Shown: positions 1-32,915 of the stretch, one piece after another | Position numbering within the stretch: the first letter of the stretch is position 1 | How the letters are laid out: every line of letters begins with the position of its first letter | DNA from: Pseudobutyrivibrio sp. YE44 | GTDB lineage: Bacteria > Bacillota > Clostridia > Lachnospirales > Lachnospiraceae | Reading direction: 5' to 3' | Assembly: GCF_900104335.1 (NCBI RefSeq) | Contig: NZ_FMXT01000018.1 | Coordinates: forward strand, 1 to 32,969 | Length of the DNA: 32,969 nucleotides | The notes under the pieces: model-generated | Database searches by the model: none | Seen by the model: the letters and a program-made list of their open reading frames with translations, nothing else | Told to the model about the DNA's origin: nothing | Position numbers and translations under genes: made by a program

Positions 1-79
<79 letters not shown>

Positions 80-1812: not shown

Positions 1813-3357
1813 TTAATTTTTCTTATTAAACATAATATCATTTAGCTGCTCTGCAGTGTATTGTCTCTGCTGGAAATTGTTAAATGAATTTTTTTCAGCT
1901 TTACTTGAAACCTTTACGGATGTTCCTTGTTCTATAATCCTGCATATATAGCCTATGCTATCTTCGATTGGATCTAATGATTCATTGTCTAATCGTTGTT
2001 TATATGAACTGAACACCTGCATCATGTATTGACCATCTTTATTGTTTCTCTTTGCACACGCCGTAATTCTAGATATTTCGTTATCATTGAAATCTAGTTT
2101 GGAAATAGCACAAAGCATTTTGATTTCCGAATATAGCTCCTTATCTATATTTTCACTAATAGATTGAGACTCAATAAGATTATCTTCATCTATCACACGC
2201 GCTTTAACATCAATGAATCTATTCTCTTTGATTTCGAACCTGAAACCCTGTATCTTTCCTGTTTCCGGAACTCTTTTTACATTAACTGAAAACTCACTAT
2301 CTGGAAGATTGTTTACTTTTTCTTGAGCTTCCTTTAGCCTTCTCCAAATTCCTCGTGCTTCAGTGTTTGCGTCAACTTTTAATTCATACCTAGCTTCCTC
2401 AACTGAGAGCTCTTTCACGCCTGGGATTGCACCTTTATACTTGGTATATCCTTTGTTACGCGCACAGAACATGTACAATGCTCTAGCATATCCCTTTAAG
2501 GAGCGAGATATCTTTCTATTCCAATGTGTTCCATGAAGGATCCCTGATGATGACATAAGAACTCGGTAGAAATCATTTGTGTATACATCGAAATGTGCTT
2601 TCTCGCCGGTACGCTTGTTGTTTCCTACCCATTCTGCACCATCATTCCAGTGAATCATTATGTTATGTCCATCTCGATCTGGATCTGGAATATCAAACTC
2701 TAAATTTGTTTTCTTTAGCTCTTCTGCACCTTTTTTAAAGGCATTGTATAATGCTTCATCAGACTTATAATTAGTGTAGGGTTTTAAATCATCTGCCGTT
2801 AATCTGAAGTATGAATCCTCAGGTTTAGATGATTGTAGGGCCGACAGTGCCTCCCATAAAGTATTCGCCTCCTCAGAAAATTGGACAATCATGTGATCCA
2901 CAAGAATATCTGTCATGTAGGCAATATCAATACCACCTCTTTTTAAAGGAGTTGCATTTGACTGTAGGGCTAATAATAGGAACATTGCCTCTCGGGAAGA
3001 TTCTCTATATGTACGAATGAAATTTCCATAGGTAAGCTTTTCTTTTGCAATTGATGCAATAACTAAGCCATCAGCATCAAATTCAATTCGACCATTCTCA
3101 TCAACAATATTAAAATGCTTCTGATCCAAATCGATGGTTCGTCCGTCCTCAGTCAGAATTGTTTGATGCTCAATCTGATCAACTATACTTGATCCTTGTG
3201 CTATTATGCTTGTTTCAGATTCTGTATTTGATGATGCAACCAAACCAAAATTTTCCTCGACTTCATAAGGTCTTATTGGCTCACCGATAAATCTCTCAGA
3301 ATCAGTATCATATTTTTGGTACCAATTGTTTGCGTTTACCCTTGTAATGATTCCCAT
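1813..3357 (-). CDS. Plasmid-type replication initiator (Rep_3/RepB-like)
   Basis: A 514-aa protein. The central part (SYFRLTADDLKPYTNYKSDE through HWNRKISRSLKGYARALYMF and ELSVEEARYELKVDANTEAR) has the look of Rep_3-superfamily initiators: two winged-helix domains that bind iterons and open the origin. The N-terminal 90 residues and the tail are not recognised. The start is placed at 3357 because AAGGGAGA lies 6 bp upstream; the in-frame ATG at 3384 has no such site. A promoter (TTGTAA, 17 bp, TAAAAT) sits just upstream, and the iteron array lies immediately beyond it, the usual arrangement for an autoregulated iteron initiator. Family membership is inferred from motif appearance and context. 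Confidence 0.82.
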   Translation of the reverse strand: MGIITRVNANNWYQKYDTDSERFIGEPIRPYEVEENFGLVASSNTESETSIIAQGSSIVDQIEHQTILTEDGRTIDLDQKHFNIVDENGRIEFDADGLVIASIAKEKLTYGNFIRTYRESSREAMFLLLALQSNATPLKRGGIDIAYMTDILVDHMIVQFSEEANTLWEALSALQSSKPEDSYFRLTADDLKPYTNYKSDEALYNAFKKGAEELKKTNLEFDIPDPDRDGHNIMIHWNDGAEWVGNNKRTGEKAHFDVYTNDFYRVLMSSSGILHGTHWNRKISRSLKGYARALYMFCARNKGYTKYKGAIPGVKELSVEEARYELKVDANTEARGIWRRLKEAQEKVNNLPDSEFSVNVKRVPETGKIQGFRFEIKENRFIDVKARVIDEDNLIESQSISENIDKELYSEIKMLCAISKLDFNDNEISRITACAKRNNKDGQYMMQVFSSYKQRLDNESLDPIEDSIGYICRIIEQGTSVKVSSKAEKNSFNNFQQRQYTAEQLNDIMFNKKN

Positions 3358-3385
3358 TATTCTGTCTCCCTTAATACTGTACATA

Positions 3386-3414
3386 ATTTTATATTAAGAA
3401 AGAACTATTTACAA
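3386..3414 (-). promoter_or_regulatory. Promoter of the replication initiator gene
   Basis: On the minus strand, TTGTAA (3409-3414), a 17-bp spacer and TAAAAT (3386-3391). A hairpin GTGTC/GACAC (3422-3445) and the first iteron (3463) lie just upstream, so Rep binding could feed back on this promoter. Confidence 0.6.
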
Positions 3415-3462
3415 GAAAAACGTGTCTGCTTTTTTGTGCTGACACTCTTTTTTAAACTCAGC

Positions 3463-3938
3463 ACTCATATCTTCGACTCAATCATATTCTAATTTTCATT
3501 TATGATTTTCATGTATATGACAGACGTTTTCTAGTAATTTCATTTAACTCATATTTCTGACACAGTGGAGAATGTGAGTTAGTATTAATATATTGACTCA
3601 TTTACTCATATTTGCGACTCATATTCTGATAGTAAGCCTGTTTATTGCATTGATGCACTCATATTATTAACACACCTTTCGCATCTGAGTCGTTTTTTCT
3701 TCTTTAACTCAATCACTCATATTCCCAACTCAATTATATGAACTACATATTAAATCCCCTATTTACTATATTTCAACCACTCATATTTGTAACACAGTAT
3801 TGTCATTTGTGTTATTTATACTATGTCAACTCATTTACTCATATTTGCGACTCACAACTAATATTGTCGACTCGATTACTAATATGAAAGGCGCATTTAC
3901 TCATATTTACAACTCAAAATACTCATATTCCTAACTCG
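3463..3938. repeat. Iteron array (putative replication origin)
   Basis: Eleven copies of an 18-bp direct repeat with consensus ACTCATATTNNNNACTCA, all in one orientation. Starts: 3463, 3547, 3604, 3657, 3715, 3779, 3837, 3857, 3878, 3899 and 3921; a possible twelfth overlaps at 3617. The two ends share the half-site ACTCA, 13 bp apart. The right half varies (ACTCA, ACACA, ACTCG). Spacing is irregular on the left and close to 20-22 bp on the right (3837-3938), about two helical turns, which would put bound initiators on one face. The array lies directly upstream of the rep gene. Nothing else in 3385-4066 looks coding. Confidence 0.88.
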
Positions 3939-4025
3939 TCATATTCCTTGAAATCCCTATAAAATAAGGCTTTGCTTGATACCTCTTTTACTTTATATAC
4001 TCTTTTTTACTTTTATTATTCTTTC

Positions 4026-4060
4026 CAGAAAGAAAAAGAGAACCCATTGTAGAGTTCTCT
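4026..4060 (-). terminator. Terminator of the par operon
   Basis: On the minus strand, stem AGAGAAC/GTTCTCT (4037-4043 and 4054-4060) followed by a T-rich run, just after the stop codon of the partition gene. Confidence 0.75.
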
Positions 4061-4066
4061 CATAAT

Positions 4067-4696
4067 TTAATACCATTCATCATCATTTAATATTGCCTGA
4101 TGTATTATATATGCACAATATCTTTGTACTGATAATCTATGTCTAATTGAATTCTTTTTTATTTGCTGTTTGATATCTGTTTTTACTTTAATACTTGTGT
4201 TTACAGATAATGATAAACCTTTAAATTCTGCATGTTTTTCATCTGATAAATCTATTTTTTTGGCTTTAATATCTTCTGTATCTGCCTGGATTAATGATAC
4301 AAAGAAATCAGATGTAGACATGTCTAGTTCTGTGGATCTGAATTTTAAGTAATCTCGCTCTTCCTGAGTTACCATAAAAATATTCATGTATACTTCATCA
4401 TTTGCGGCAGCTACAATACTTTTGGGATTTTTTAATGCAACTGGAGTTTCAACTTTAGCCTGAGGCTTTGATATTTCTTTCTTAGCTTCTTTTGGAGTTG
4501 TTTCTATTGGTTTACCAGAAGCTTTTGTTTCAACTGGTTTTGTTTTAGCCGCAGACGGTTTATTAGTTATTTTAGGAGTTGGCGCCATTTTATTTTCTAC
4601 ATCATTCTCTTTGCTTGGCTTTTCTTCTGACGGAAGTCCAGCAAATAAGCCTGTAAAATCTGTCGAAAATGCATTTCCACTATGTCCTTTTGCCAT
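4067..4696 (-). CDS. Plasmid partition protein, probable ribbon-helix-helix DNA binder
   Basis: A 209-aa protein encoded 16 bp downstream of parA, the position of the centromere-binding partner. Residues 20-95 are a Lys/Pro/Thr-rich, low-complexity linker. The C-terminal half has two segments that look like ribbon-helix-helix units: a strand plus two helices in IFMVTQEERDYLKFRSTELD...SDFFVSLIQ, and LSVNTSIKVKTDIKQQ...LSVQRYCAYIIHQAI. It has no ParB N-terminal or HTH motifs. Its role is inferred mainly from position: bind a parS-like site and stimulate ParA. The ribosome binding site AAAGGGAA precedes the ATG. Confidence 0.72.
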   Translation of the reverse strand: MAKGHSGNAFSTDFTGLFAGLPSEEKPSKENDVENKMAPTPKITNKPSAAKTKPVETKASGKPIETTPKEAKKEISKPQAKVETPVALKNPKSIVAAANDEVYMNIFMVTQEERDYLKFRSTELDMSTSDFFVSLIQADTEDIKAKKIDLSDEKHAEFKGLSLSVNTSIKVKTDIKQQIKKNSIRHRLSVQRYCAYIIHQAILNDDEWY

Positions 4697-4712
4697 AACT
4701 TATTCCCTTTCT

Positions 4713-5489
4713 CTACTGTTTTTCGTAGTTGATAAATTCTTCAACTAGTTTCTTGTAATCTAATGCACTATTACAATATGGCGAATATCGCACAACAAAA
4801 TCGCATTTATCGATGGCTTCTTGACCTTTAGCACATCCTCTGATTTTTGTATCATAAAGCCTTGTGCCAAGCTGTGCAGCGATTCTTTCAGCGTTATTTA
4901 ATGCATTTTTACCGTTATTTGTGGAACCTTGGTAGTGTATCATTACCATTCCGTTAATAGTTAGATTTGGGTTAATTTCTTCTTTTACACGTAGTATTAC
5001 TTGGTATATGTCTGCAAGACCCTTTACAGCCAGCATATCGCCTTTTAAAGTTACTAATATCTCGTCAACAGATGCTATAACTGATCTATTTATAAAACCT
5101 GTCAAATCTGGTGGACAATCAACTAATATATAATCATAGCCTTCAATTTGGTTTAAAACTTTTGTTTTAAAGTCGTTCAATTTGATAGTTGAATCATAAA
5201 TCTTCGAAGTGATTTCGGATATTAATGAGTCTCCGGCTATAATATCGCCTTTTTCAGTGTGTTGAATACATTCCATCGGACTCATTGGACGTCTTACTTC
5301 AATCCAACAATCGTATAATGTTGCTTCGTTCTCAACTTTTGCTCCGTAGAGAAGAGAACTGTTGCACTGAGGATCGCAATCGATTACTAAAGTTTTATAT
5401 CCTTTTTCATTTAACAGATAAGCTAAGTTACATGTAGTAGTAGTTTTCCATTGGCCACCTTTACCAATGCATATTGCTAATGATTTCAT
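4713..5489 (-). CDS. parA: ParA-family partition ATPase with altered Walker A
   Basis: A 258-aa MinD/ParA-type ATPase that would segregate this replicon by dynamic binding to the nucleoid. The deviant Walker A is at residues 10-17: KGGQWKTT, with Trp where KGGxGKT has Gly. The motif VIDCDPQCNSS (about 37-47) and the Walker B-like YILVDCPPDLT follow, with the usual spacing. The signature lysines K10 and K15 are kept. The ribosome binding site GGGAGG lies 4 bp before the ATG. It is first in a two-gene operon with the partition gene. There is no N-terminal HTH, so this is a small (type Ib-like) ParA, whose partner rather than itself usually represses the operon. Confidence 0.93.
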   Translation of the reverse strand: MKSLAICIGKGGQWKTTTTCNLAYLLNEKGYKTLVIDCDPQCNSSLLYGAKVENEATLYDCWIEVRRPMSPMECIQHTEKGDIIAGDSLISEITSKIYDSTIKLNDFKTKVLNQIEGYDYILVDCPPDLTGFINRSVIASVDEILVTLKGDMLAVKGLADIYQVILRVKEEINPNLTINGMVMIHYQGSTNNGKNALNNAERIAAQLGTRLYDTKIRGCAKGQEAIDKCDFVVRYSPYCNSALDYKKLVEEFINYEKQ

Positions 5490-7971: not shown

Positions 7972-8511
7972 ATGAGCACATTAAAATTGATAAATGAATC
8001 TTGTGCAGAACAGAAAGTGGATGCTATTGTGAATGCTGCTAATAAGTATTTAGCAGCAGGTGGGGGTATATGTGGAGTCATATTTAATAAGGCAGGAGTT
8101 AGAGAACTTACGGAAGCATGTAATAAATGTAATCTTCCATTAAGGGATGGGGAAGCAGTCATTACTCCGTCATTTAATATAGAAAATTGTAATTATATAA
8201 TTCATGCTGTTGGACCGAATTTTGGAAGTACGCCAAAGGCTTTTGCAGAATTATATGAGGCGTATTATAATTCATTGCTTCTATTAAAGAAAAATGAACT
8301 ACACAGCATATCGTTTCCATTAATAAGTGCAGGTATCTTTGGTGGCACATTAGCAGATGCGCCAGGTGAGTCAACCAAACAATGTGTAAGGGCGTATAAT
8401 AAATTTGTATCTTGTTTTCCAGATTATGATATAGAGGTAATTCTTTGTGCATATGGAATGGAAGAATTCATATCTTCCAAAAAAGTATTTGAAAATAGTA
8501 AAATTCAATAA
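7972..8511 (+). CDS. Macro-domain protein (ADP-ribose binding)
   Basis: A 179-aa single-domain macro protein, likely a cytoplasmic O-acetyl-ADP-ribose deacetylase or mono-ADP-ribosyl hydrolase. Seen: DAIVNAANKYLAAGGGICGVI (residues about 17-37, with the catalytic-type Asn/Asn and Gly loop), GEAVITPSF, YIIHAVGP and ISFPLISAGIFGG (the second phosphate-binding loop). The length suits the family. The ribosome binding site AGGTAGGGA precedes the ATG. An aldehyde dehydrogenase gene follows after 46 bp on the same strand, so the two are probably co-transcribed. Both proteins handle NAD-derived chemistry, but a shared pathway is only a guess. Confidence 0.92.
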   Translation: MSTLKLINESCAEQKVDAIVNAANKYLAAGGGICGVIFNKAGVRELTEACNKCNLPLRDGEAVITPSFNIENCNYIIHAVGPNFGSTPKAFAELYEAYYNSLLLLKKNELHSISFPLISAGIFGGTLADAPGESTKQCVRAYNKFVSCFPDYDIEVILCAYGMEEFISSKKVFENSKIQ

Positions 8512-16305: not shown

Positions 16306-16965
16306 ATGGGAAATTATTATTCGTATATGCGTATAAGCACCGATACGGAGAAGCAAAACTTCAATAGACAGATTAAAAGTCTGAGTCGCTATGCAAAAGA
16401 GCAGGACATAGAATACCTAGTTGAATTTACAAAAGAGAAGTCTGCTAAGAATTTTACAGAGCGACCACAGTTCCAAAAACTGGATAAGATTCTACAGAAA
16501 GATGATACTGTTGTTTTCAAAGACATCTCTAGATTCACCCGTGAAGCTGAGAATGGCTACATGAAATATATGGAATGGCTGAATCGTGGAATCAATGTTG
16601 TGTTCATTGATAATCCAACTGTGTCCAGCGAGTACATTAAGCAGATGTTGGATGTAGCCCAAGCGCAGGATCTAGTCACACGTACAGCAATGGAAGGAGT
16701 AATCAAATTACTTCTTATTGTAGAGCTGGATAGAGCAGAGCAGCAGCGCTTATACATTTCCAAGGCAATCAAGGATGGTATTGTTGCAAGTAATAAACGC
16801 AGCGGCAGAAAGCAAGGTCAATTTGATAAACTGACACCTGAGCTTAAGGCGGATATTCAAGCATATCTGCATGACCGTTCGATTAAGCAAGTGGATTTGA
16901 TGCGGAAGTATGGGATTTCTAGGAATACGCTGAAGAAGTATGTAGAGAGTGAACAAAAGCACTAG
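16306..16965 (+). CDS. Serine recombinase (resolvase/invertase family)
   Basis: A 219-aa small serine recombinase. The N-terminal catalytic domain starts YYSYMRISTDTEKQNFNRQI, with the nucleophilic Ser in RISTD, and DISRFTREAENGY follows. A C-terminal helix-turn-helix is present (IKQVDLMRKYGISRNTLKKY). It would resolve plasmid multimers, invert DNA or move a cassette. The start at 16306 follows GAGGAG; the frame reaches back to 16249 without a better site. Its 3' end is repeated as a relic at 18622-18675, beyond the AbiE pair. The stop codon is inside a terminator. Confidence 0.92.
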   Translation: MGNYYSYMRISTDTEKQNFNRQIKSLSRYAKEQDIEYLVEFTKEKSAKNFTERPQFQKLDKILQKDDTVVFKDISRFTREAENGYMKYMEWLNRGINVVFIDNPTVSSEYIKQMLDVAQAQDLVTRTAMEGVIKLLLIVELDRAEQQRLYISKAIKDGIVASNKRSGRKQGQFDKLTPELKADIQAYLHDRSIKQVDLMRKYGISRNTLKKYVESEQKH

Positions 16966-18589: not shown

Positions 18590-18621
18590 TTGAACCATTG
18601 CATGTGTTTAAAGTGTGGAGA

Positions 18622-18675
18622 TATTGGATATCTAGAAATACGCTGAAGAAGTATATTGAAAACGAGAAGAAGTAA
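18622..18675 (+). pseudogene. Relic of a second resolvase 3' end
   Basis: Reads WISRNTLKKYIENEKK then stop, a close copy of the resolvase C-terminus YGISRNTLKKYVESEQKH. The DNA match is 18622-18665 against 16910-16953, including an identical AATACGCTGAAGAAGTAT. Both copies face the same way and flank the AbiE pair, so the AbiE cassette sits between two recombinase tails. Confidence 0.85.
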
Positions 18676-18732: not shown

Positions 18733-18749
18733 TATGAGAGAAAAGTGTT

Positions 18750-18770
18750 ATGTACAAAATTATGCACATA
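18750..18770 (+). promoter_or_regulatory. Palindromic operator upstream of the AAA+ gene (copy 1)
   Basis: A 21-bp element with arms ATGTACA and TGCACAT around AAATTA. It is matched at 18 of 21 positions by a second copy at 20892-20912. An extended -10 (TGATACAAT, ending 18784) begins 6 bp downstream, so the element covers the -35 region of the ATPase promoter. Confidence 0.6.
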
Positions 18771-18775
18771 AGCTC

Positions 18776-18784
18776 TGATACAAT
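18776..18784 (+). promoter_or_regulatory. Extended -10 promoter of the AAA+ gene
   Basis: TGATACAAT, about 55 bp before the ATG. No clear -35 box; the palindrome lies in its place. Confidence 0.5.
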
Positions 18785-18840
18785 TTCATATACAAATTAG
18801 GTTAAGTAGTTGTTTTTTCTTAATCGGAGGTTATATTTTT

Positions 18841-20892
18841 ATGCTTTGTTATACTGTAAAGTTTAAACTAACAGCTATTCCAGAAGAATTGGAAAAGGAA
18901 GAGGAGAGAAGGTCTAGTAGAAATACTGCGGATAGAGTTATAAAGAAAATAAACCAATGTATAAATGGGTTAGCAATAAATGGTGAATTCTATTGCTTTG
19001 CATTTAGAAGTAATGAAGAGTCTGTAGATATAGCAGTTTCCTTATGGCCAGATAAAATCACTCTTGCAGATGTAAATAAACAAATTCAAAAGGCACCGAA
19101 CAAAACTAAAGCTTATGTAATAGGCAAAGTGGTGTCAAATCGGGAAATTACTGCAAAATATTTCGTTCATTTACAAGAGGAAGCCGATAATAGAGGATAT
19201 TTTGACCATGGAATACGTCGCTCAGAATATGATTTACAGCTTGATTATTTCGATAATTCTTATTTTAAGATAAACGAATACATAGCAAAAGAAGGATACT
19301 TTTTGCAGAAGGATGCTATTGAGGAGGCAAAAAGTATCATGGCGGATAAGAGTTTGTTAGATGAGATAGAACGTATTTATTCTAGCGATAACGCTTTAAA
19401 GTTTTATGGACATCCTGTGCATTATAAAATTCAGGCAGGCGATCAGCAAACAGCCCTAGTCATCATTGATTTGATGGTTAGAATGCTTCATACGAGACAT
19501 AGGTCGCAAGGTGTAAGAATAAATGTTATCAGTGATTTAAGTGATAGAGCTTTTGACGAAACGGATTTGAAGAAAGTGTTTAAGCAATCGGGCGGAGGTA
19601 TCTTGGTAATTGATGCTCATGGGGATAATTGCTTTACTGGAAATTTTGCAAATAGTTATAAGAGATTAGTAAAGTTCTTAGGTGAATTAGCTACTGAATA
19701 TCATAAAAATACATTATTTTTCTTTTTAGAAGATTTAGCGAATCCTGGATTTTCGAAAGAACTACTGGCAAGAGTTTCAGAGGATCTTGATATTATCGGG
19801 ATTTCTGAGGGTGCAGGAAATAGAGATGAAGCACTCGCATATTTTAGGTTGCTTTCACAGAAAACTGAGTTCGCAGAATTAGTTGACGATTCAATAGATG
19901 ATTATCTTTCTCATAGTAAGAAAGTCTTTAAATGTTTCGATGTACAAAAAGCCTATAACAAATGGTCTAAGGAGATATTGAAGTCTAAAGTATATAGTGC
20001 TTACAGCAATTGCAAAATGGCGAAGATAGTTGAGAAGAAGAAAGGGACTGCATATGAGGAACTTCAGGATATGGTAGGGTTATCTGAAGTGAAGAATTTG
20101 ATTGATAGTATTATAGCCGCCTACAAGGTACAGAAATATCGAGAGACATATGGACTTTGCAAAACAAATATGGCTAGACATATGGTATTTACGGGGAATC
20201 CTGGCTGTGCAAAGACTACTGTTGCAAGGTTGCTAACGGATGTTTTGACAGAAGAAGGGGTCCTTAAGTCTGGTGCATACGTCGAATGTGGACGAAGTGA
20301 TTTGGTTGGACAGTATGTTGGTTGGACCGCACCTGCAGTTGTAGACAAGTTTAAGGAGGCCTCTGGTGGAGTTTTATTCATTGATGAAGCTTATTCGTTA
20401 GTAGAAAAAGATGGATTATACGGCGATGAAGCTATTAATACAATTGTCCAAGAGATGGAGAACCATAGAAATAGCGTGATTGTTATATTCGCGGGTTATC
20501 CAGACAAGATGAAGAAGTTTCTTGATAAGAATGAGGGTTTGAGAAGCCGAATAGCATTTCATTTAGGCTTCCCTGATTATAAACCAGAGGAACTCTTGGA
20601 CATAATGAGGCTCATGTTAAGGGAAAGAGGTCTAAAGGCTGATAAAGAAGCTGAACAGAAATGCCTAAGAATTTTTGAACAGGCTTATCAAATAGAAGAG
20701 TATGGCAATGGAAGGTTTGTGAGAAATCTGGTGGAACGAGCAATTCTGAAACAGGCTCAACGTTTGATGAAACGAAAGAATGCTACCCCAACAAGGGGGC
20801 AAATTATGAGATTAACGGCGGATGATTTTGATGAAACCATAATAGAGAACTTGGATAAGAAGCAAGGTGGAGTTATTGGATTTGCAGTTTGA
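18841..20892 (+). CDS. AAA+ ATPase of the CbbX/SpoVK type with degenerate first module
   Basis: A 683-aa protein. The C-terminal module is a classic CbbX/SpoVK/EccA-like AAA+ domain: Walker A GNPGCAKTT (about 451-459), Walker B GVLFIDEAYS (about 508-517) and an Arg-finger region GLRSRIAFHLGFPDY (about 565-580), then the lid (GNGRFVRNLVERAI). About 185-330 looks like a second AAA module that has lost its active site: HPVHYKIQAGDQQTA where Walker A should be, and GGGILVIDAHGD in place of the acidic Walker B. The N-terminal 180 residues are unknown, rich in charge. The ribosome binding site CGGAGG precedes the ATG. A nuclease gene follows after 113 bp. Related AAA+ proteins are hexameric remodelling motors; here a role in controlling the nuclease is inference. 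Confidence 0.9.
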   Translation: MLCYTVKFKLTAIPEELEKEEERRSSRNTADRVIKKINQCINGLAINGEFYCFAFRSNEESVDIAVSLWPDKITLADVNKQIQKAPNKTKAYVIGKVVSNREITAKYFVHLQEEADNRGYFDHGIRRSEYDLQLDYFDNSYFKINEYIAKEGYFLQKDAIEEAKSIMADKSLLDEIERIYSSDNALKFYGHPVHYKIQAGDQQTALVIIDLMVRMLHTRHRSQGVRINVISDLSDRAFDETDLKKVFKQSGGGILVIDAHGDNCFTGNFANSYKRLVKFLGELATEYHKNTLFFFLEDLANPGFSKELLARVSEDLDIIGISEGAGNRDEALAYFRLLSQKTEFAELVDDSIDDYLSHSKKVFKCFDVQKAYNKWSKEILKSKVYSAYSNCKMAKIVEKKKGTAYEELQDMVGLSEVKNLIDSIIAAYKVQKYRETYGLCKTNMARHMVFTGNPGCAKTTVARLLTDVLTEEGVLKSGAYVECGRSDLVGQYVGWTAPAVVDKFKEASGGVLFIDEAYSLVEKDGLYGDEAINTIVQEMENHRNSVIVIFAGYPDKMKKFLDKNEGLRSRIAFHLGFPDYKPEELLDIMRLMLRERGLKADKEAEQKCLRIFEQAYQIEEYGNGRFVRNLVERAILKQAQRLMKRKNATPTRGQIMRLTADDFDETIIENLDKKQGGVIGFAV

Positions 20893-20912
20893 TGTGCAAA
20901 ATAATGTACATA
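20892..20912 (+). promoter_or_regulatory. Palindromic operator upstream of the nuclease gene (copy 2)
   Basis: Arms ATGTGCA and TGTACAT around AAATAA, 18 of 21 identical to the element at 18750-18770. It begins at the last base of the AAA+ stop codon. A further TATGTAC at 20938-20944 makes an inverted repeat with GTACATA (20906-20912), and a partial third copy lies near 20962. Confidence 0.6.
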
Positions 20913-21005
20913 GAATAGTCACAGCTAGAGTTCATAATATGTACTATATGGGGAATTGATGCATGTACGAATTATTCATAATTAGGTATAGGTAGGAGAA
21001 CAGCT

Positions 21006-22454
21006 ATGGATACATTTACTAATTTGCTTAAAAAGGCTAGTAAATATATTACAGAGTATCAATCCGTTAATGAGATAAGGAAAAATGATTTTAATATCTT
21101 TAGAATCGAACGGATAGATAATAAAGAAGTCCTAATGTGCCGCTTTCTTCGAGAGTTGTTAGATCCAAAAGGAAGTCATGGGCAGGGGGATACTTTTTTA
21201 AAACTATTTATTGAAAATGTACTTAACTATTCGAGGATTGGTGATTCTGATTATAGTAATGCAAGTGTTGTTGCAGAATATCCTATCGATGGATTAAGAA
21301 GAATTGACCTATGCATAATAGCAGGAAGGAAATTTATTCCAATTGAGGTAAAGATATATGCAGATGACCAAGATAATCAATGTAGGGATTATTATGTGTA
21401 TGCCAAAGATAAGGATGAAGACACTAGAATATTTTACTTAACAATTGATGGTCATGAGCCGAGTGAAAGCAGTAAGGGCGAACTGAGGCCTAATGAACAA
21501 TTATGTTGTATATCCTTTGAAAGTGATATTTCTAACTGGTTAAAATCATGCATTGATTTAACAGAAAATGCTGATGTTAAAAGTATATTAAGACAGTATT
21601 TGGATGTGATTCAAGGTTGGTCTAAGCGGGAAGGTACTTGGAATAAAATGAGTGAGAAAGAACAAAAGGATTTAGTTAAAGAAATTTCAAAATCTTCAGC
21701 ATTATTTAATGCTGCATCGACAATAGAACAAGCTATAAAATACGTAAAAATAGAGAAGATGAAAGAAGTTTTTCGGGCTATAGAAAAACATATGGAACGA
21801 TATAGTGATATGGGACTTAAGCTTGTGACATTATATGAGGACCAAACAAAGGAATTCTACGAGAATAACCGGAGGTCTTGGCCAAGTCTTAACTACATTA
21901 TTCCATTATCTAAGTGGGGGATAGATAAAAACATTTCATTCAGAATTGAAATTGAATGGAAGATATATATGGGACTTACGCCTTGGTCTGGGTGCAATAA
22001 TTGGGATGTTCATAAAGAAGATATTATTCAAAGAATAATTGACGACAACGATTTAAGCTTGGCAGGAGCTCACGAAAAAGAAAATGGTAACTGGTATTGG
22101 TGGAAATACTTAAACGAAGAAACCGCTGTTAATTTTAGATACACCAATAATGATGAATATTATTCTTTGTATGATGAAGAAGATTTCGCAAAGTATATTG
22201 AGGGTATATGTTCTGATATAGATAGTTATTTCGGAAAACTAAAACATATATTGGAGGTATGTTGTGACAAAAAAATACTTAAAGATAGCATTGGCATACG
22301 TGGGAGTTATAGTTGGCGCAGGCCTTTCTTCAGGACAGGATTTGATGCAGTACTTCGTGAGTTTTGGAAAGCAGGGAATTATAGGTGTAATTCTTCTTGC
22401 AGTTTTAAATATAGTTTTTGGAAAAATCATTGTTACATTGGGGTGTTATTATGA
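21006..22454 (+). CDS. PD-(D/E)XK nuclease superfamily protein
   Basis: A 482-aa frame. The N-terminal 200 residues match the PDDEXK_4-type layout: FLRELLDPKGSHGQGDTFLK (about 48-67), then the catalytic core GLRRIDLCIIAGRKFIPIEV followed by K, with Asp near 100, Glu near 114 and Lys near 116. The rest is helical, followed by a Trp/Tyr-rich region (WYWWKYLNEETAVNFRY). The last 63 codons overlap the next gene out of frame and read like a frame shadow, so the original stop was probably lost near 22260; the natural end would be near YFGKLKHILEV. The ribosome binding site TAGGAGA precedes the ATG. Paired with the AAA+ gene; likely DNA cleavage in defence, by inference. Confidence 0.85.
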   Translation: MDTFTNLLKKASKYITEYQSVNEIRKNDFNIFRIERIDNKEVLMCRFLRELLDPKGSHGQGDTFLKLFIENVLNYSRIGDSDYSNASVVAEYPIDGLRRIDLCIIAGRKFIPIEVKIYADDQDNQCRDYYVYAKDKDEDTRIFYLTIDGHEPSESSKGELRPNEQLCCISFESDISNWLKSCIDLTENADVKSILRQYLDVIQGWSKREGTWNKMSEKEQKDLVKEISKSSALFNAASTIEQAIKYVKIEKMKEVFRAIEKHMERYSDMGLKLVTLYEDQTKEFYENNRRSWPSLNYIIPLSKWGIDKNISFRIEIEWKIYMGLTPWSGCNNWDVHKEDIIQRIIDDNDLSLAGAHEKENGNWYWWKYLNEETAVNFRYTNNDEYYSLYDEEDFAKYIEGICSDIDSYFGKLKHILEVCCDKKILKDSIGIRGSYSWRRPFFRTGFDAVLREFWKAGNYRCNSSCSFKYSFWKNHCYIGVLL

Positions 22455-23499
22455 TTCGGATAGTCACCAGGATGTCTTAGAACAGGTGGCGCATCCTATT
22501 ATTACAAAAATCATAGATTACACGTTGATTGTGTCTGGCTTTATCATTTTTTTCGTAATGATTGCAGGCGCAGGTGCAAATCTTCATCAGCAGTTTGATT
22601 TTCCAAACTGGTTAGGTGCGCTTGTTTGTGCATTGTTAGTTATTATTGTTTCATTTATGGACTTTGATAAAATTACATCTGTACTTGGAATATTTACTCC
22701 AATAATCATAGTTATGATTGTTGCAATCACTGCATATACTTACATTGGCCATAGCTATGATTGGAACAATATATATAGAGTAGCAGGAGAGCTTCCAGCT
22801 CCAATGCCAAAAGTAATTTTTTCAGCAATTAATTACTACTCACTTTGTGCCGTGACAGGAGTATCTATGGCATTTGTGCTTGGTGGCTCGGTAGTACGAA
22901 TAGGTGTTGCGGAAAAGGGCGGTGCTATAGGTGGAGCGTTAATTGGTGTGATAGTATTATGTGCTTATGGTGCTCTTTTGGCTAATGTGGAAAGTATTTC
23001 TAACGCAGAAATACCAATGTTGGCAATAGTGGCAAGTATAAATCCTGTTTTTGCACATATCTATACTTTTACAATATTTGCGTTGATCTTTAATACAGCT
23101 TTTAGCTTAAGCTATGCCTTGGCAAAGAGACTATCAGGAAATGATAATAAAAAGCTTCATATTATTTTGATTACAGTAGTGGTTGCTGGGTATCTGTGCA
23201 GCTTCGCAGGCTTTAAAAAGCTGGTATCATTGATGTACCCAGTTTTAGGCTATATAGGTATACTTCTTTTGGGCGTACTTCTTGTAGCATGGATTCGAGA
23301 AAAACAAAATATCATGAAAGAAAAAATGCTTCGTAGAAAGATGATTGCTGTAGAGAAGAAGAAATATGATGAAGATCAGGAATATACATTAAAGGATAAA
23401 AAGCTATTTAAGAAGCTTGCAGAGGAATCAGTGCTTGATGCTTCCGATATAAAACAAGAAGTGAAGGATGTTGTAAAGGAAGAACAGGATAATAATTAA
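22264..23499 (+). CDS. YkvI-like membrane protein, LeuT/APC-like transporter fold
   Basis: A 411-aa polytopic membrane protein with about ten hydrophobic helices. The start (IALAYVGVIVGAGLSSGQDL) has the glycine-rich unwound helix typical of the YkvI group and APC/LeuT-fold carriers. The C-terminal 70 residues are a charged cytoplasmic tail (KKYDEDQEYTLKDKKLFKK). Substrate unknown. The start is GTG at 22264: GGAGG lies 6 bp upstream. It overlaps the preceding nuclease frame by 191 bp, which is unusual, and the function looks unrelated, so it is probably the neighbour at the island boundary. Confidence 0.85.
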   Translation: MTKKYLKIALAYVGVIVGAGLSSGQDLMQYFVSFGKQGIIGVILLAVLNIVFGKIIVTLGCYYDSDSHQDVLEQVAHPIITKIIDYTLIVSGFIIFFVMIAGAGANLHQQFDFPNWLGALVCALLVIIVSFMDFDKITSVLGIFTPIIIVMIVAITAYTYIGHSYDWNNIYRVAGELPAPMPKVIFSAINYYSLCAVTGVSMAFVLGGSVVRIGVAEKGGAIGGALIGVIVLCAYGALLANVESISNAEIPMLAIVASINPVFAHIYTFTIFALIFNTAFSLSYALAKRLSGNDNKKLHIILITVVVAGYLCSFAGFKKLVSLMYPVLGYIGILLLGVLLVAWIREKQNIMKEKMLRRKMIAVEKKKYDEDQEYTLKDKKLFKKLAEESVLDASDIKQEVKDVVKEEQDNN

Positions 23500-23504
23500 A
23501 GGAG

Positions 23505-31736: not shown

Positions 31737-31742
31737 TTCTAG

Positions 31743-31816
31743 CGTGCGTGAGAAGATTCGAACTCCCGACACCTTGGTCCGTAGCCAAGTGCTCTATCCA
31801 GCTGAGCTACACACAC
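31743..31816 (-). tRNA. tRNA-Arg (anticodon ACG)
   Basis: Cloverleaf read on the minus strand: acceptor GTGTGTG/CACGCAC, anticodon loop CTACGGA, T loop TTCGAAT. CCA is not encoded. Last gene of the array. Confidence 0.95.
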
Positions 31817-31838
31817 ATATTTACAAACTTGAAGATGA

Positions 31839-31911
<73 letters not shown>

Positions 31912-31917
31912 TAGTAA

Positions 31918-31991
31918 TAGCGAGAGGGGGATTCGAACCCTCGACACCGCGGGTATGAACCGCGTGCTCTAGCCAACTGAGCTATCTCGCC
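31918..31991 (-). tRNA. tRNA-Met (anticodon CAT), elongator type
   Basis: Acceptor GGCGAGA/TCTCGCT with the G1-U72 pair typical of Firmicute elongator tRNA-Met, anticodon loop TTCATAC. It lacks the initiator's three G-C pairs in the anticodon stem. A lysidine-modified Ile tRNA is less likely. Confidence 0.9.
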
Positions 31992-32003
31992 ATAATAATA
32001 AAG

Positions 32004-32085
32004 TGGGTGGTGGTGGATTCGAACCACCGAAGCAATTAGCAGCAGATTTACAGTCTGTCCCCTTTGGCCACTCGGGAAACCACCC
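32004..32085 (-). tRNA. tRNA-Tyr (anticodon GTA)
   Basis: Class II tRNA with a long variable arm, acceptor GGGTGGT/ACCACCC, anticodon loop CTGTAAA. Confidence 0.95.
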
Positions 32086-32097
32086 CTAAAAAAATAA

Positions 32098-32170
32098 TGC
32101 GCGATCAGGGGTTCGAACCCTGGACACCCTGATTAAGAGTCAGGTGCTCTGCCAGCTGAGCTAATCGCGC
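32098..32170 (-). tRNA. tRNA-Lys (anticodon CTT)
   Basis: Acceptor GCGCGAT/ATCGCGC, anticodon loop CTCTTAA, discriminator A. Confidence 0.95.
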
Positions 32171-32202
32171 AAATTATTAAACTGTAAATTGCCAATGCAA
32201 AG

Positions 32203-32273
32203 AGCGGGTGATGGGAATCGAACCCACGTATTCAGCTTGGAAGGCTGATGTTCTACCATTGAACCACACCCGC
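32203..32273 (-). tRNA. tRNA-Gly (anticodon TCC)
   Basis: Acceptor GCGGGTG/CACCCGC, anticodon loop CTTCCAA, discriminator T. Confidence 0.95.
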
Positions 32274-32286
32274 ATATTAAGTTAAG

Positions 32287-32361
32287 TCGGGGTGACAGGA
32301 TTCGAACCTGCGACCCCCTGGTCCCAAACCAGGTGCTCTAGCCAAACTGAGCCACACCCCG
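32287..32361 (-). tRNA. tRNA-Pro (anticodon TGG)
   Basis: Acceptor CGGGGTG/CACCCCG, anticodon loop TTTGGGA, discriminator A. Confidence 0.95.
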
Positions 32362-32368
32362 ATATTAA

Positions 32369-32441
32369 TGGGACCTACAGGGCTCGAACCTGTGACCCTC
32401 TGCTTGTAAGGCAGATGCTCTCCCAGCTGAGCTAAGATCCC
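32369..32441 (-). tRNA. tRNA-Val (anticodon TAC)
   Basis: Acceptor GGGATCT/AGGTCCC, anticodon loop CTTACAA, discriminator A. Confidence 0.95.
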
Positions 32442-32460
32442 ATAACAACCAATCTGGTAA

Positions 32461-32534
32461 CGACCCCAGAGGGACTTGAACCCTCGACCTCCGCCGTGAC
32501 AGGGCGGCGCTCTAACCAACTGAGCCATGAGGCC
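32461..32534 (-). tRNA. tRNA-Asp (anticodon GTC)
   Basis: Acceptor GGCCTCA/TGGGGTC with G-T pairs, anticodon loop CTGTCAC, discriminator G as expected for Asp. Confidence 0.95.
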
Positions 32535-32538
32535 AAAA

Positions 32539-32624
32539 CGCAGAGGGTGGGATTCGAACCCACGCGCCCTTGCGGACAAACGGTTTTCAAGACCGCCTCG
32601 TTATGACCACTTCGATACCTCTGC
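32539..32624 (-). tRNA. tRNA-Ser (anticodon TGA)
   Basis: Class II tRNA with long variable arm, acceptor GCAGAGG/CCTCTGC, anticodon loop CTTGAAA, discriminator G. Confidence 0.95.
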
Positions 32625-32643
32625 ATATGTGTTAAATTTTGAA

Positions 32644-32716
32644 AGCCGATGATCGGACTCGAACCGATAACCTGCTGATTACAAATCAGCTGCTCTGCCA
32701 ATTGAGCCACATCGGC
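32644..32716 (-). tRNA. tRNA-Thr (anticodon TGT)
   Basis: Acceptor GCCGATG/CATCGGC, anticodon loop TTTGTAA. Confidence 0.95.
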
Positions 32717-32744
32717 ATATTACTAAGTATTGCCTTTAGGCAAA

Positions 32745-32816
32745 TGACTCCGACGGGAATCGAACCCGTGTTACCGCCGTGAAAGGGCGATGTCTTAACC
32801 GCTTGACCACGGAGCC
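32745..32816 (-). tRNA. tRNA-Glu (anticodon TTC)
   Basis: Acceptor GGCTCCG/CGGAGTC, anticodon loop CTTTCAC. A 7-bp hairpin GACAACG/CGTTGTC lies in the spacer before it (32822-32839), possibly a processing signal. Confidence 0.95.
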
Positions 32817-32842
32817 AAACTGACAACGCCTACGTTGTCTAG

Positions 32843-32915
32843 CTCCCCAAGTAGGACTCGAACCTACGACAACTCGGTTAACAGCCGAGTGCTCTACCAA
32901 CTGAGCTATTGAGGA
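32843..32915 (-). tRNA. tRNA-Asn (anticodon GTT)
   Basis: Acceptor TCCTCAA/TTGGGGA, anticodon loop CTGTTAA, discriminator G. Confidence 0.95.

What the first reader, a model, noticed from the sequence alone, without database searches (positions are those of the whole stretch)
18750..22454. Candidate two-gene defence module: two-tier AAA+ ATPase plus PD-(D/E)XK nuclease under a shared palindrome
A CbbX/SpoVK-like AAA+ ATPase with one active and one apparently dead AAA module is followed by a PDDEXK_4-like nuclease on the same strand. Near-identical 21-bp palindromes (18 of 21 positions) lie upstream of each gene. The pair sits in a cluster of AbiE modules, a DUF1016 relic and recombinases. I do not recognise this combination as a named defence system. 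Motifs and repeats are read directly; the defence role is inferred from context.
Basis: partly seen in the sequence, partly recalled or inferred. Interest (0 to 1): 0.72.

Follow-up and report, generated by a model that had tools for sequence, protein, structure and literature searches.

The report
Orphaned pair from a WYL regulon
An ATPase gene and a DNA-cutting nuclease gene share a DNA switch that, in related gut and rumen bacteria, belongs to a variable regulator-controlled array of suspected anti-virus genes, but here the regulator gene appears to be missing.

Summary
In detail: a CbbX-like AAA+ ATPase (18841-20892) with an inactive N-terminal AAA module, a PDDEXK_4 nuclease (from 21006), and two near-identical palindromes. 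It is not a conserved two-gene system: same-order adjacency was seen only here and in one other species of the genus; most homologues found sit apart. The palindrome explains the pairing. ATGTRCA-N6-TGYACAT marks a subfamily of WYL-domain regulators: in 80 WYL-seeded loci it occurs exactly 38 times, against 0 for each of 12 control palindromes, usually with a -10 element exactly 9 nt downstream and no -35. It precedes ATPase relatives, FtsH-like proteases, nucleases, WYL genes, and paralogues of DnaA, DnaB, PolC/DnaE and FtsZ. In the sister species the WYL gene directly follows the nuclease; here homology stops six bases before the nuclease's end, fused to a membrane-protein gene, and no close copy of that regulator was found in the genome. 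Best reading: an orphaned two-gene piece of a WYL-controlled, probably DNA-damage/ssDNA-induced defence regulon. WYL binding, activation versus repression, and phage defence are inferred, not shown.

The parts
18750..18769 (+). palindrome 1 (operator ATGTRCA-N6-TGYACAT)
   Evidence: exact match, one of two in the genome; same motif enriched at WYL-seeded loci
18774..18784 (+). extended -10 element T-C-TG-A-TACAAT, TANNNT starting 9 nt after palindrome 1, no -35 hexamer
   Evidence: sequence; matches the logo of 64 promoters and fixed spacing
18841..20892 (+). AAA+ ATPase of the CbbX/SpoVK/EccA clade, 683 aa
19318..20010 (+). degenerate AAA module (about residues 160-390), G-x-P-V-x-Y motif
20050..20835 (+). 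active AAA module and lid (residues 404-665), Walker A GNPGCAKT, Walker B LFIDEA
20892..20911 (+). palindrome 2, overlapping the last base of the ATPase stop codon; no -10 element at the standard spacing
21006..22256 (+). PDDEXK_4 nuclease (PADLOC PDC-S26), homologous part; lacks the last codons and stop of the sister copy
22253..22256 (+). recombination junction GGAG, shared by the ribosome-binding site before the sister species' WYL gene and that before the membrane-protein gene
   Evidence: overlapping match ends and printed flanks
22257..22454 (+). out-of-frame tail of the nuclease ORF inside the next gene; not nuclease

Best explanation
The two genes are a displaced piece of a WYL-regulator-controlled defence array. 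The palindromes are binding sites of a WYL-family homodimer. In intact arrays each site sits over the -35 region of a promoter that has a good (often extended) -10 but no -35, so the WYL protein most likely recruits RNA polymerase (as reported for SiwR and PafBC) when it senses DNA damage or single-stranded DNA such as appears in phage replication; repression (as in BrxR and CapW) is the alternative. Switched on, the array makes nucleases (here PDDEXK_4) and a two-tier ATPase whose dead upper module would bind a dedicated target and whose active CbbX-like lower module would remodel it; the nuclease would cut DNA. In this genome the piece was joined to another gene and no close copy of its regulator was found, so the pair is probably expressed only at basal level or by read-through. 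Shown by computation: gene identities, dead and active modules, operator enrichment, fixed -10 spacing, linkage to the WYL subfamily, the junction. Inferred: WYL binding, activation, the signal, the enzymes' targets, phage defence.
For: Operator: in 80 WYL-seeded loci (1.08 Mb) 38 exact, 87 at <=1 and 129 at <=2 mismatches; 12 shuffled-half-site palindromes gave 0 exact, 0-9 at <=1 and 5-55 at <=2; loci with a site at <=1 mismatch 52 of 80 against 0-8. 83 of 87 sites lie outside ORFs of 120 aa or more; 64 of 92 promoter-oriented instances have TANNNT exactly 9 nt downstream, next best offsets 19 and 11; after removing similar promoters 51 of 79, and none of those 51 matches TTGACA at 4 or more of 6 positions (random positions 13%). 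ATPase genes not found through WYL: 9 of 19 have a site (<=2) within 200 bp upstream (7 of 17 without the window and G301), control genes 0 of 246. 8 of 10 genomes with the WYL subfamily have a site (<=1) within 5 kb of it. WYL and full-length ATPase co-occur in 4 of 299 genomes (9 each; P 4.5e-5). 3 of 4 exact hits of the composite operator-promoter in the IMG/VR viral contigs lie at WYL, FtsH-like or HD genes of the same clusters. In G301 the WYL gene follows the nuclease directly. Own genome: best WYL match 28% identity. Literature passages: SiwR, a homodimeric WYL activator on a 19-bp palindrome upstream of -10; PafBC -26 motif and ssDNA activation.
Against: No binding or expression data. 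28 of 80 WYL loci lack a site at <=1 mismatch. Only 13 of 85 WYL genes and 12 of 17 WYL-seeded ATPases have a site within 200 bp upstream at <=2; 10 of 19 other ATPases have none. Palindrome 2 lacks the standard -10. Some sites in L081-L083 look like terminator hairpins (my reading). Extended -10 promoters can work unaided, which would fit a repressor. Known WYL defence regulators BrxR and CapW repress. The nuclease family outside the genus carries no such site (6 of 6). Loci partly share ancestry (for example L170, L175, L177).
Confidence: 0.7

Rival explanations
1. Same regulon, but the WYL protein is a repressor that blocks an otherwise active extended -10 promoter and lets go on infection, as BrxR and CapW do. 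In the window the pair would then be switched on constantly.
For: BrxR and CapW repress defence genes through palindromes (passages); TNTGN extended -10 in 27 of 79 distinct promoters can replace a -35 (general knowledge).
Against: Spacing to -10 is fixed at 9 nt in 51 of 79 distinct promoters, which repression does not need; CapW sites overlap -10, here they end upstream of it; geometry is closer to SiwR and the PafBC -26 motif.
Confidence: 0.35
2. The ATPase and nuclease form a real two-gene system whose parts act in one complex.
For: Same order in G301 over 3.5 kb at 88.8% identity; both genes under purifying selection (dN/dS about 0.08 and 0.16); a PDDEXK_4-type nuclease and the ATPase lie in one array in L170 and L164.
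Against: No other adjacent pair in 299 family genomes or 29 genus genomes (nuclease search); nuclease dS 0.08 against ATPase dS 0.96 shows different histories of the two genes.
Confidence: 0.15
3. The palindromes are single-stranded-DNA entry promoters of leading-region genes on conjugative elements, not WYL operators.
For: Hairpin-capable palindromes before many genes, and mobile contexts (recalled analogy, not tested).
Against: Strong link to one WYL subfamily; 7-bp arms with AT-rich centre and -10 outside the stem.
Confidence: 0.05
4. The junction at 22253-22256, and so the orphan state, is an assembly error.
For: One assembly, reads not available; 4-bp microhomology only.
Against: No WYL of the subfamily anywhere in the 99.94% complete assembly.
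Confidence: 0.1

Closest known systems
BrxR/CapW WYL-controlled defence loci (PMC9122601, PMC9122588; passages read)
   Same: WYL regulator linked to diverse defence genes; ~20-bp palindromic operators in promoters
   Different: Several operators per array, each before its own gene; operator over -35 with fixed 9-nt gap to -10; in the window no close regulator copy; Picton et al. list BrxR homologues in 6 of 607 Firmicutes genomes, so this subfamily is probably another branch (not tested by tree)
SiwR and PafBC WYL activators (PMC10693628, PMC11804915; passages read)
   Same: Homodimer on a 19-bp palindrome between -35 and -10 (SiwR); motif near -26 with no normal -35 contact (PafBC)
   Different: Actinobacterial, damage-response genes, not nuclease/ATPase arrays
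CbbX/SpoVK/EccA clade of AAA+ chaperones (PMC10659427; passages read)
   Same: Active AAA module and lid; GY sensor-1 signature; Asn four residues before the arginine finger
   Different: Extra degenerate AAA module in front; array context; target unknown
PADLOC PDC-S26 (PDDEXK_4) phage-defence candidate
   Same: Nuclease matches three PDC-S26 models at E 3e-53 or better
   Different: Here paired and under a WYL-type operator; no paper naming PDC-S26 in the library searched

Membership tests
WYL-controlled defence locus (BrxR/CapW type) | WYL regulator gene beside the defence genes | tested here: not met
   absent beside the pair and no close copy in the genome; met in the sister species
WYL-controlled defence locus (BrxR/CapW type) | palindromic operator in the promoter | tested here: met
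WYL-controlled defence locus (BrxR/CapW type) | operator overlapping -10 (CapW) | tested here: not met
   ends 9 nt before -10
WYL-controlled defence locus (BrxR/CapW type) | regulator represses | not testable with these tools
   needs reporters
CbbX/SpoVK/EccA clade | AAA module with AAA_lid_6, GY sensor-1, Asn before arginine finger | tested here: met
   signature
CbbX/SpoVK/EccA clade | dedicated protein target | not testable with these tools
   target unknown
PDC-S26 / PDDEXK_4 nuclease | model match and D-ExK residues | tested here: met
two-gene defence system | adjacency conserved across genomes | tested here: not met
   2 genomes of one genus only; loose co-residence in L164, L170
IetAS (weak PADLOC IetA match, E 3e-5) | partner serine protease IetS (recalled) | tested here: not met
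   AAA-level match only; neighbour is PDDEXK_4

The most novel reading that the evidence does not exclude
A WYL activator that senses ssDNA fires modular arrays, in Lachnospiraceae and Selenomonadaceae, that combine nucleases and AAA+ machines with altered copies of DnaA, DnaB, PolC/DnaE and FtsZ; these copies act as decoys or dominant-negative inhibitors that stop replication and division of an infected cell. The window pair is a mobile two-gene cassette of this regulon.
Probability: 0.25. Interest if true: 0.85.

Novelty: new variant of a known kind. Interest (0 to 1): 0.6.

Why it matters
The palindrome turns an isolated gene pair into an entry point to a regulon that can be recognised by sequence alone across two bacterial classes. 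It gives a concrete operator, a candidate regulator and a list of co-regulated genes, including replication and division paralogues not reported in this setting in the papers that my searches listed. If the WYL protein is an ssDNA-triggered activator, it would be a LexA-independent route from phage replication to defence in gut and rumen Firmicutes.

Tried and rejected
Two-gene system: rejected as the main reading because linkage does not extend beyond the genus. Phage origin: the nuclease had no relative by the peptide patterns used in viral contigs; the ATPase is full length (>=80%) in 2 of 11 matching phage records and 1 of 268 matching plasmid records. LexA-type and other known operators were considered from memory only. 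Rep protein against plasmids: no match. A claim that all the Pol III copies are dead was dropped: 8 of 20 keep PDxDxN, which I recall as the PolC form of the motif. The statement in my notes that the PDDEXK_4-like gene L141:9855 lies behind a palindrome is wrong; those that do are L105:6931, L115:454 and L120:6899. The whole-length ATPase model is poor (pLDDT 72.8, pTM 0.52) and its p97/ClpC matches are weak, so the two-tier reading rests on the N-terminal model. A second structural aligner was not available.
Full report
What is there. The window holds a 683-aa ATPase gene (18841-20892) and a nuclease ORF (21006-22454) on the + strand. The ATPase carries one canonical module, AAA plus AAA_lid_6, closest to CbbX and EccA1 among solved sequences. 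It has the clade signatures given in PMC10659427 (passages): the GY in sensor-1 and an Asn four residues before the arginine finger, both invariant in 17 aligned relatives (assigning R568 as the finger is my inference). Residues 1-398 fold confidently (pLDDT 84.5) and match CbbX and other AAA+ folds. In 35 of 36 family members a G-x-P-V-x-Y motif stands in this module. The nuclease is PDDEXK_4 and PADLOC's PDC-S26.

The palindromes. The two sites agree at 18 of 21 positions and are the only exact ATGTRCA-N6-TGYACAT sites in the 3.24 Mb genome. At one mismatch the genome shows 4 sites against 5 for the control.

A sister copy. G301, another species of the genus, matches 18749-22256 at 88.8%, starting at the palindrome and ending six bases before the end of its nuclease gene. 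There the order is ATPase, nuclease, WYL regulator, a 126-aa gene, a REase-ARP nuclease, a DnaA paralogue and a Pol III alpha fragment, with a third palindrome between the WYL gene and the 126-aa gene. In the window the nuclease instead runs into a gene at 22264-23499 (no Pfam match; its hydrophobic sequence suggests a membrane protein). The overlap of the two homologies is GGAG, part of both ribosome-binding sites. The two genes have different histories: nuclease dN 0.013, dS 0.084; ATPase dN 0.073, dS 0.96. Both are under purifying selection.

Not a two-gene system. In 299 family genomes, 9 had a full-length ATPase match (my reading: more than 500 residues aligned, E <= 1e-80; only up to three candidates per genome were scored, so a lower bound) and 6 a nuclease match; only the window's own genome had both. 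In the genus, 2 of 29 genomes hold the nuclease. Annotated full-length ATPases on a Selenomonas and a Lachnospira plasmid have no such nuclease annotated next to them. Against this, 2 of the 17 ATPase-bearing WYL-seeded loci hold a PDDEXK_4-type gene in the same array: L170 (30.8% identical over 260 aa) and L164 (a member of the blastp cluster of L115:454, which scores just below the Pfam cut-off).

A WYL regulon. Palindromes like these lay upstream of ATPases, WYL genes and other genes in several relatives. A scan of genome contigs with ten WYL proteins of this subfamily gave 80 loci, most titled Lachnospiraceae or Selenomonadaceae members. They hold 38 exact, 87 (<=1 mismatch) and 129 (<=2) palindromes; twelve shuffled-half-site controls gave 0, 0-9 and 5-55. 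83 of 87 lie outside ORFs of 120 aa or more. In 64 of 92 promoter-oriented instances TANNNT stands exactly 9 nt downstream; in 51 of 79 after removing similar sequences, and none of the 51 has a -35 match of 4 or more of 6, against 13% at random positions. The logo reads ATGTRCA-W6-TGYACAT-N4-T-N-TG-N-TANNNT. Palindrome 1 of the window fits it; palindrome 2 does not have the -10.

The link to the ATPase holds without WYL seeding: 9 of 19 such ATPase genes have a site (<=2) within 200 bp upstream, 7 of 17 without the window and G301, against 0 of 246 control genes; among WYL-seeded ATPases 12 of 17. Behind 75 operator-promoters lie 74 genes: ATPase 11 (near-duplicates included, such as L170, L175 and L177), FtsH-like 9, WYL 7. 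Of the other 56, I scanned 46 (dropped: 10 very short or near-duplicate): M41 protease 9, DnaB_C 3, DnaA 2, FtsZ 2, PDDEXK_4 2, DNA Pol III alpha 1, UvrD 1; PDC-S26 models match 3. Within +-8 kb of the 80 WYL genes the ATPase occurs in 17 loci, FtsH-like in 16, PolC/DnaE-like in 14. FtsH-like members keep Walker A and HExxH in 20 of 20; DnaB_C members lack a Walker A match in 3 of 11. A composite pattern hit four viral contigs, three of them at genes of these clusters.

The regulator is missing here. Among 20 genomes that I picked, mostly because they had matches, 10 carry the WYL subfamily (E < 1e-100); 8 of these have a site (<=1) within 5 kb of it. Summed over the 20 genomes there are 92 sites at <=1 mismatch against 28 for the control. 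The window's genome has only generic WYL proteins at 28% identity. In the 299 family genomes, WYL (E <= 1e-100, 9) and ATPase (9) share 4 genomes, P 4.5e-5 (the threshold was chosen afterwards; at E <= 1e-60 there are 14 and still 4 shared).

How it may work. SiwR is a homodimeric WYL activator on a 19-bp palindrome between -35 and -10; PafBC uses a -26 motif and is activated by ssDNA (passages). Here the near half-site would lie at about -28 to -22. CapW sites overlap -10 and repress; BrxR represses (passages). I therefore favour activation, with repression as the main rival. The ATPase as a remodeller with a dedicated target and the nuclease as a DNA cutter are inferences from their families. 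Phage defence is inferred from gene content and neighbours.

Print status. No paper in the library named PDC-S26. Searches combining WYL with FtsZ, DnaA or DnaB and anti-phage terms, and WYL with Lachnospiraceae or Selenomonas, listed no paper whose title or abstract start describes such arrays; the library is partial and I did not read those listed papers, apart from passages of PMC10693628.

Noticed in passing
window 1-79, 1816-5489 and 31742-32915: The window is a whole 32,969-base contig that begins at the 5' end of a 16S rRNA gene (minus strand) and ends in 13 minus-strand tRNA genes, with a ParA gene and a weak Rep_3 match (21.7 bits, cut-off 22.4) near the rRNA end. This would fit a small circular replicon carrying one rRNA operon, or a chromosome/chromid stretch between two rRNA operons. 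No terminal overlap.
   Followed up: partly
L076:11851-16810; L114:10202-11170; L170:505-1515; L040:6658-7512; L171:3888-6512: Paralogues or fragments of DnaA, Pol III alpha, FtsZ and DnaB sit in or near the WYL arrays; some lack catalytic motifs.
   Followed up: partly
window 18621-18672 and 16901-16941: Both stretches resemble the resolvase-side flank of AbiE loci in related genomes (L086), a sign of repeated rearrangement left of palindrome 1.
   Followed up: no
window 22253-23502: A single-gene stretch, bounded just before the ribosome-binding site and just after the stop codon, is 92-93% identical to L078/L079, with no match on either side.
   Followed up: no
window 7972-8511: A macro-domain gene; macro and ADP-ribosylglycohydrolase genes also occur in some WYL-seeded loci.
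   Followed up: no
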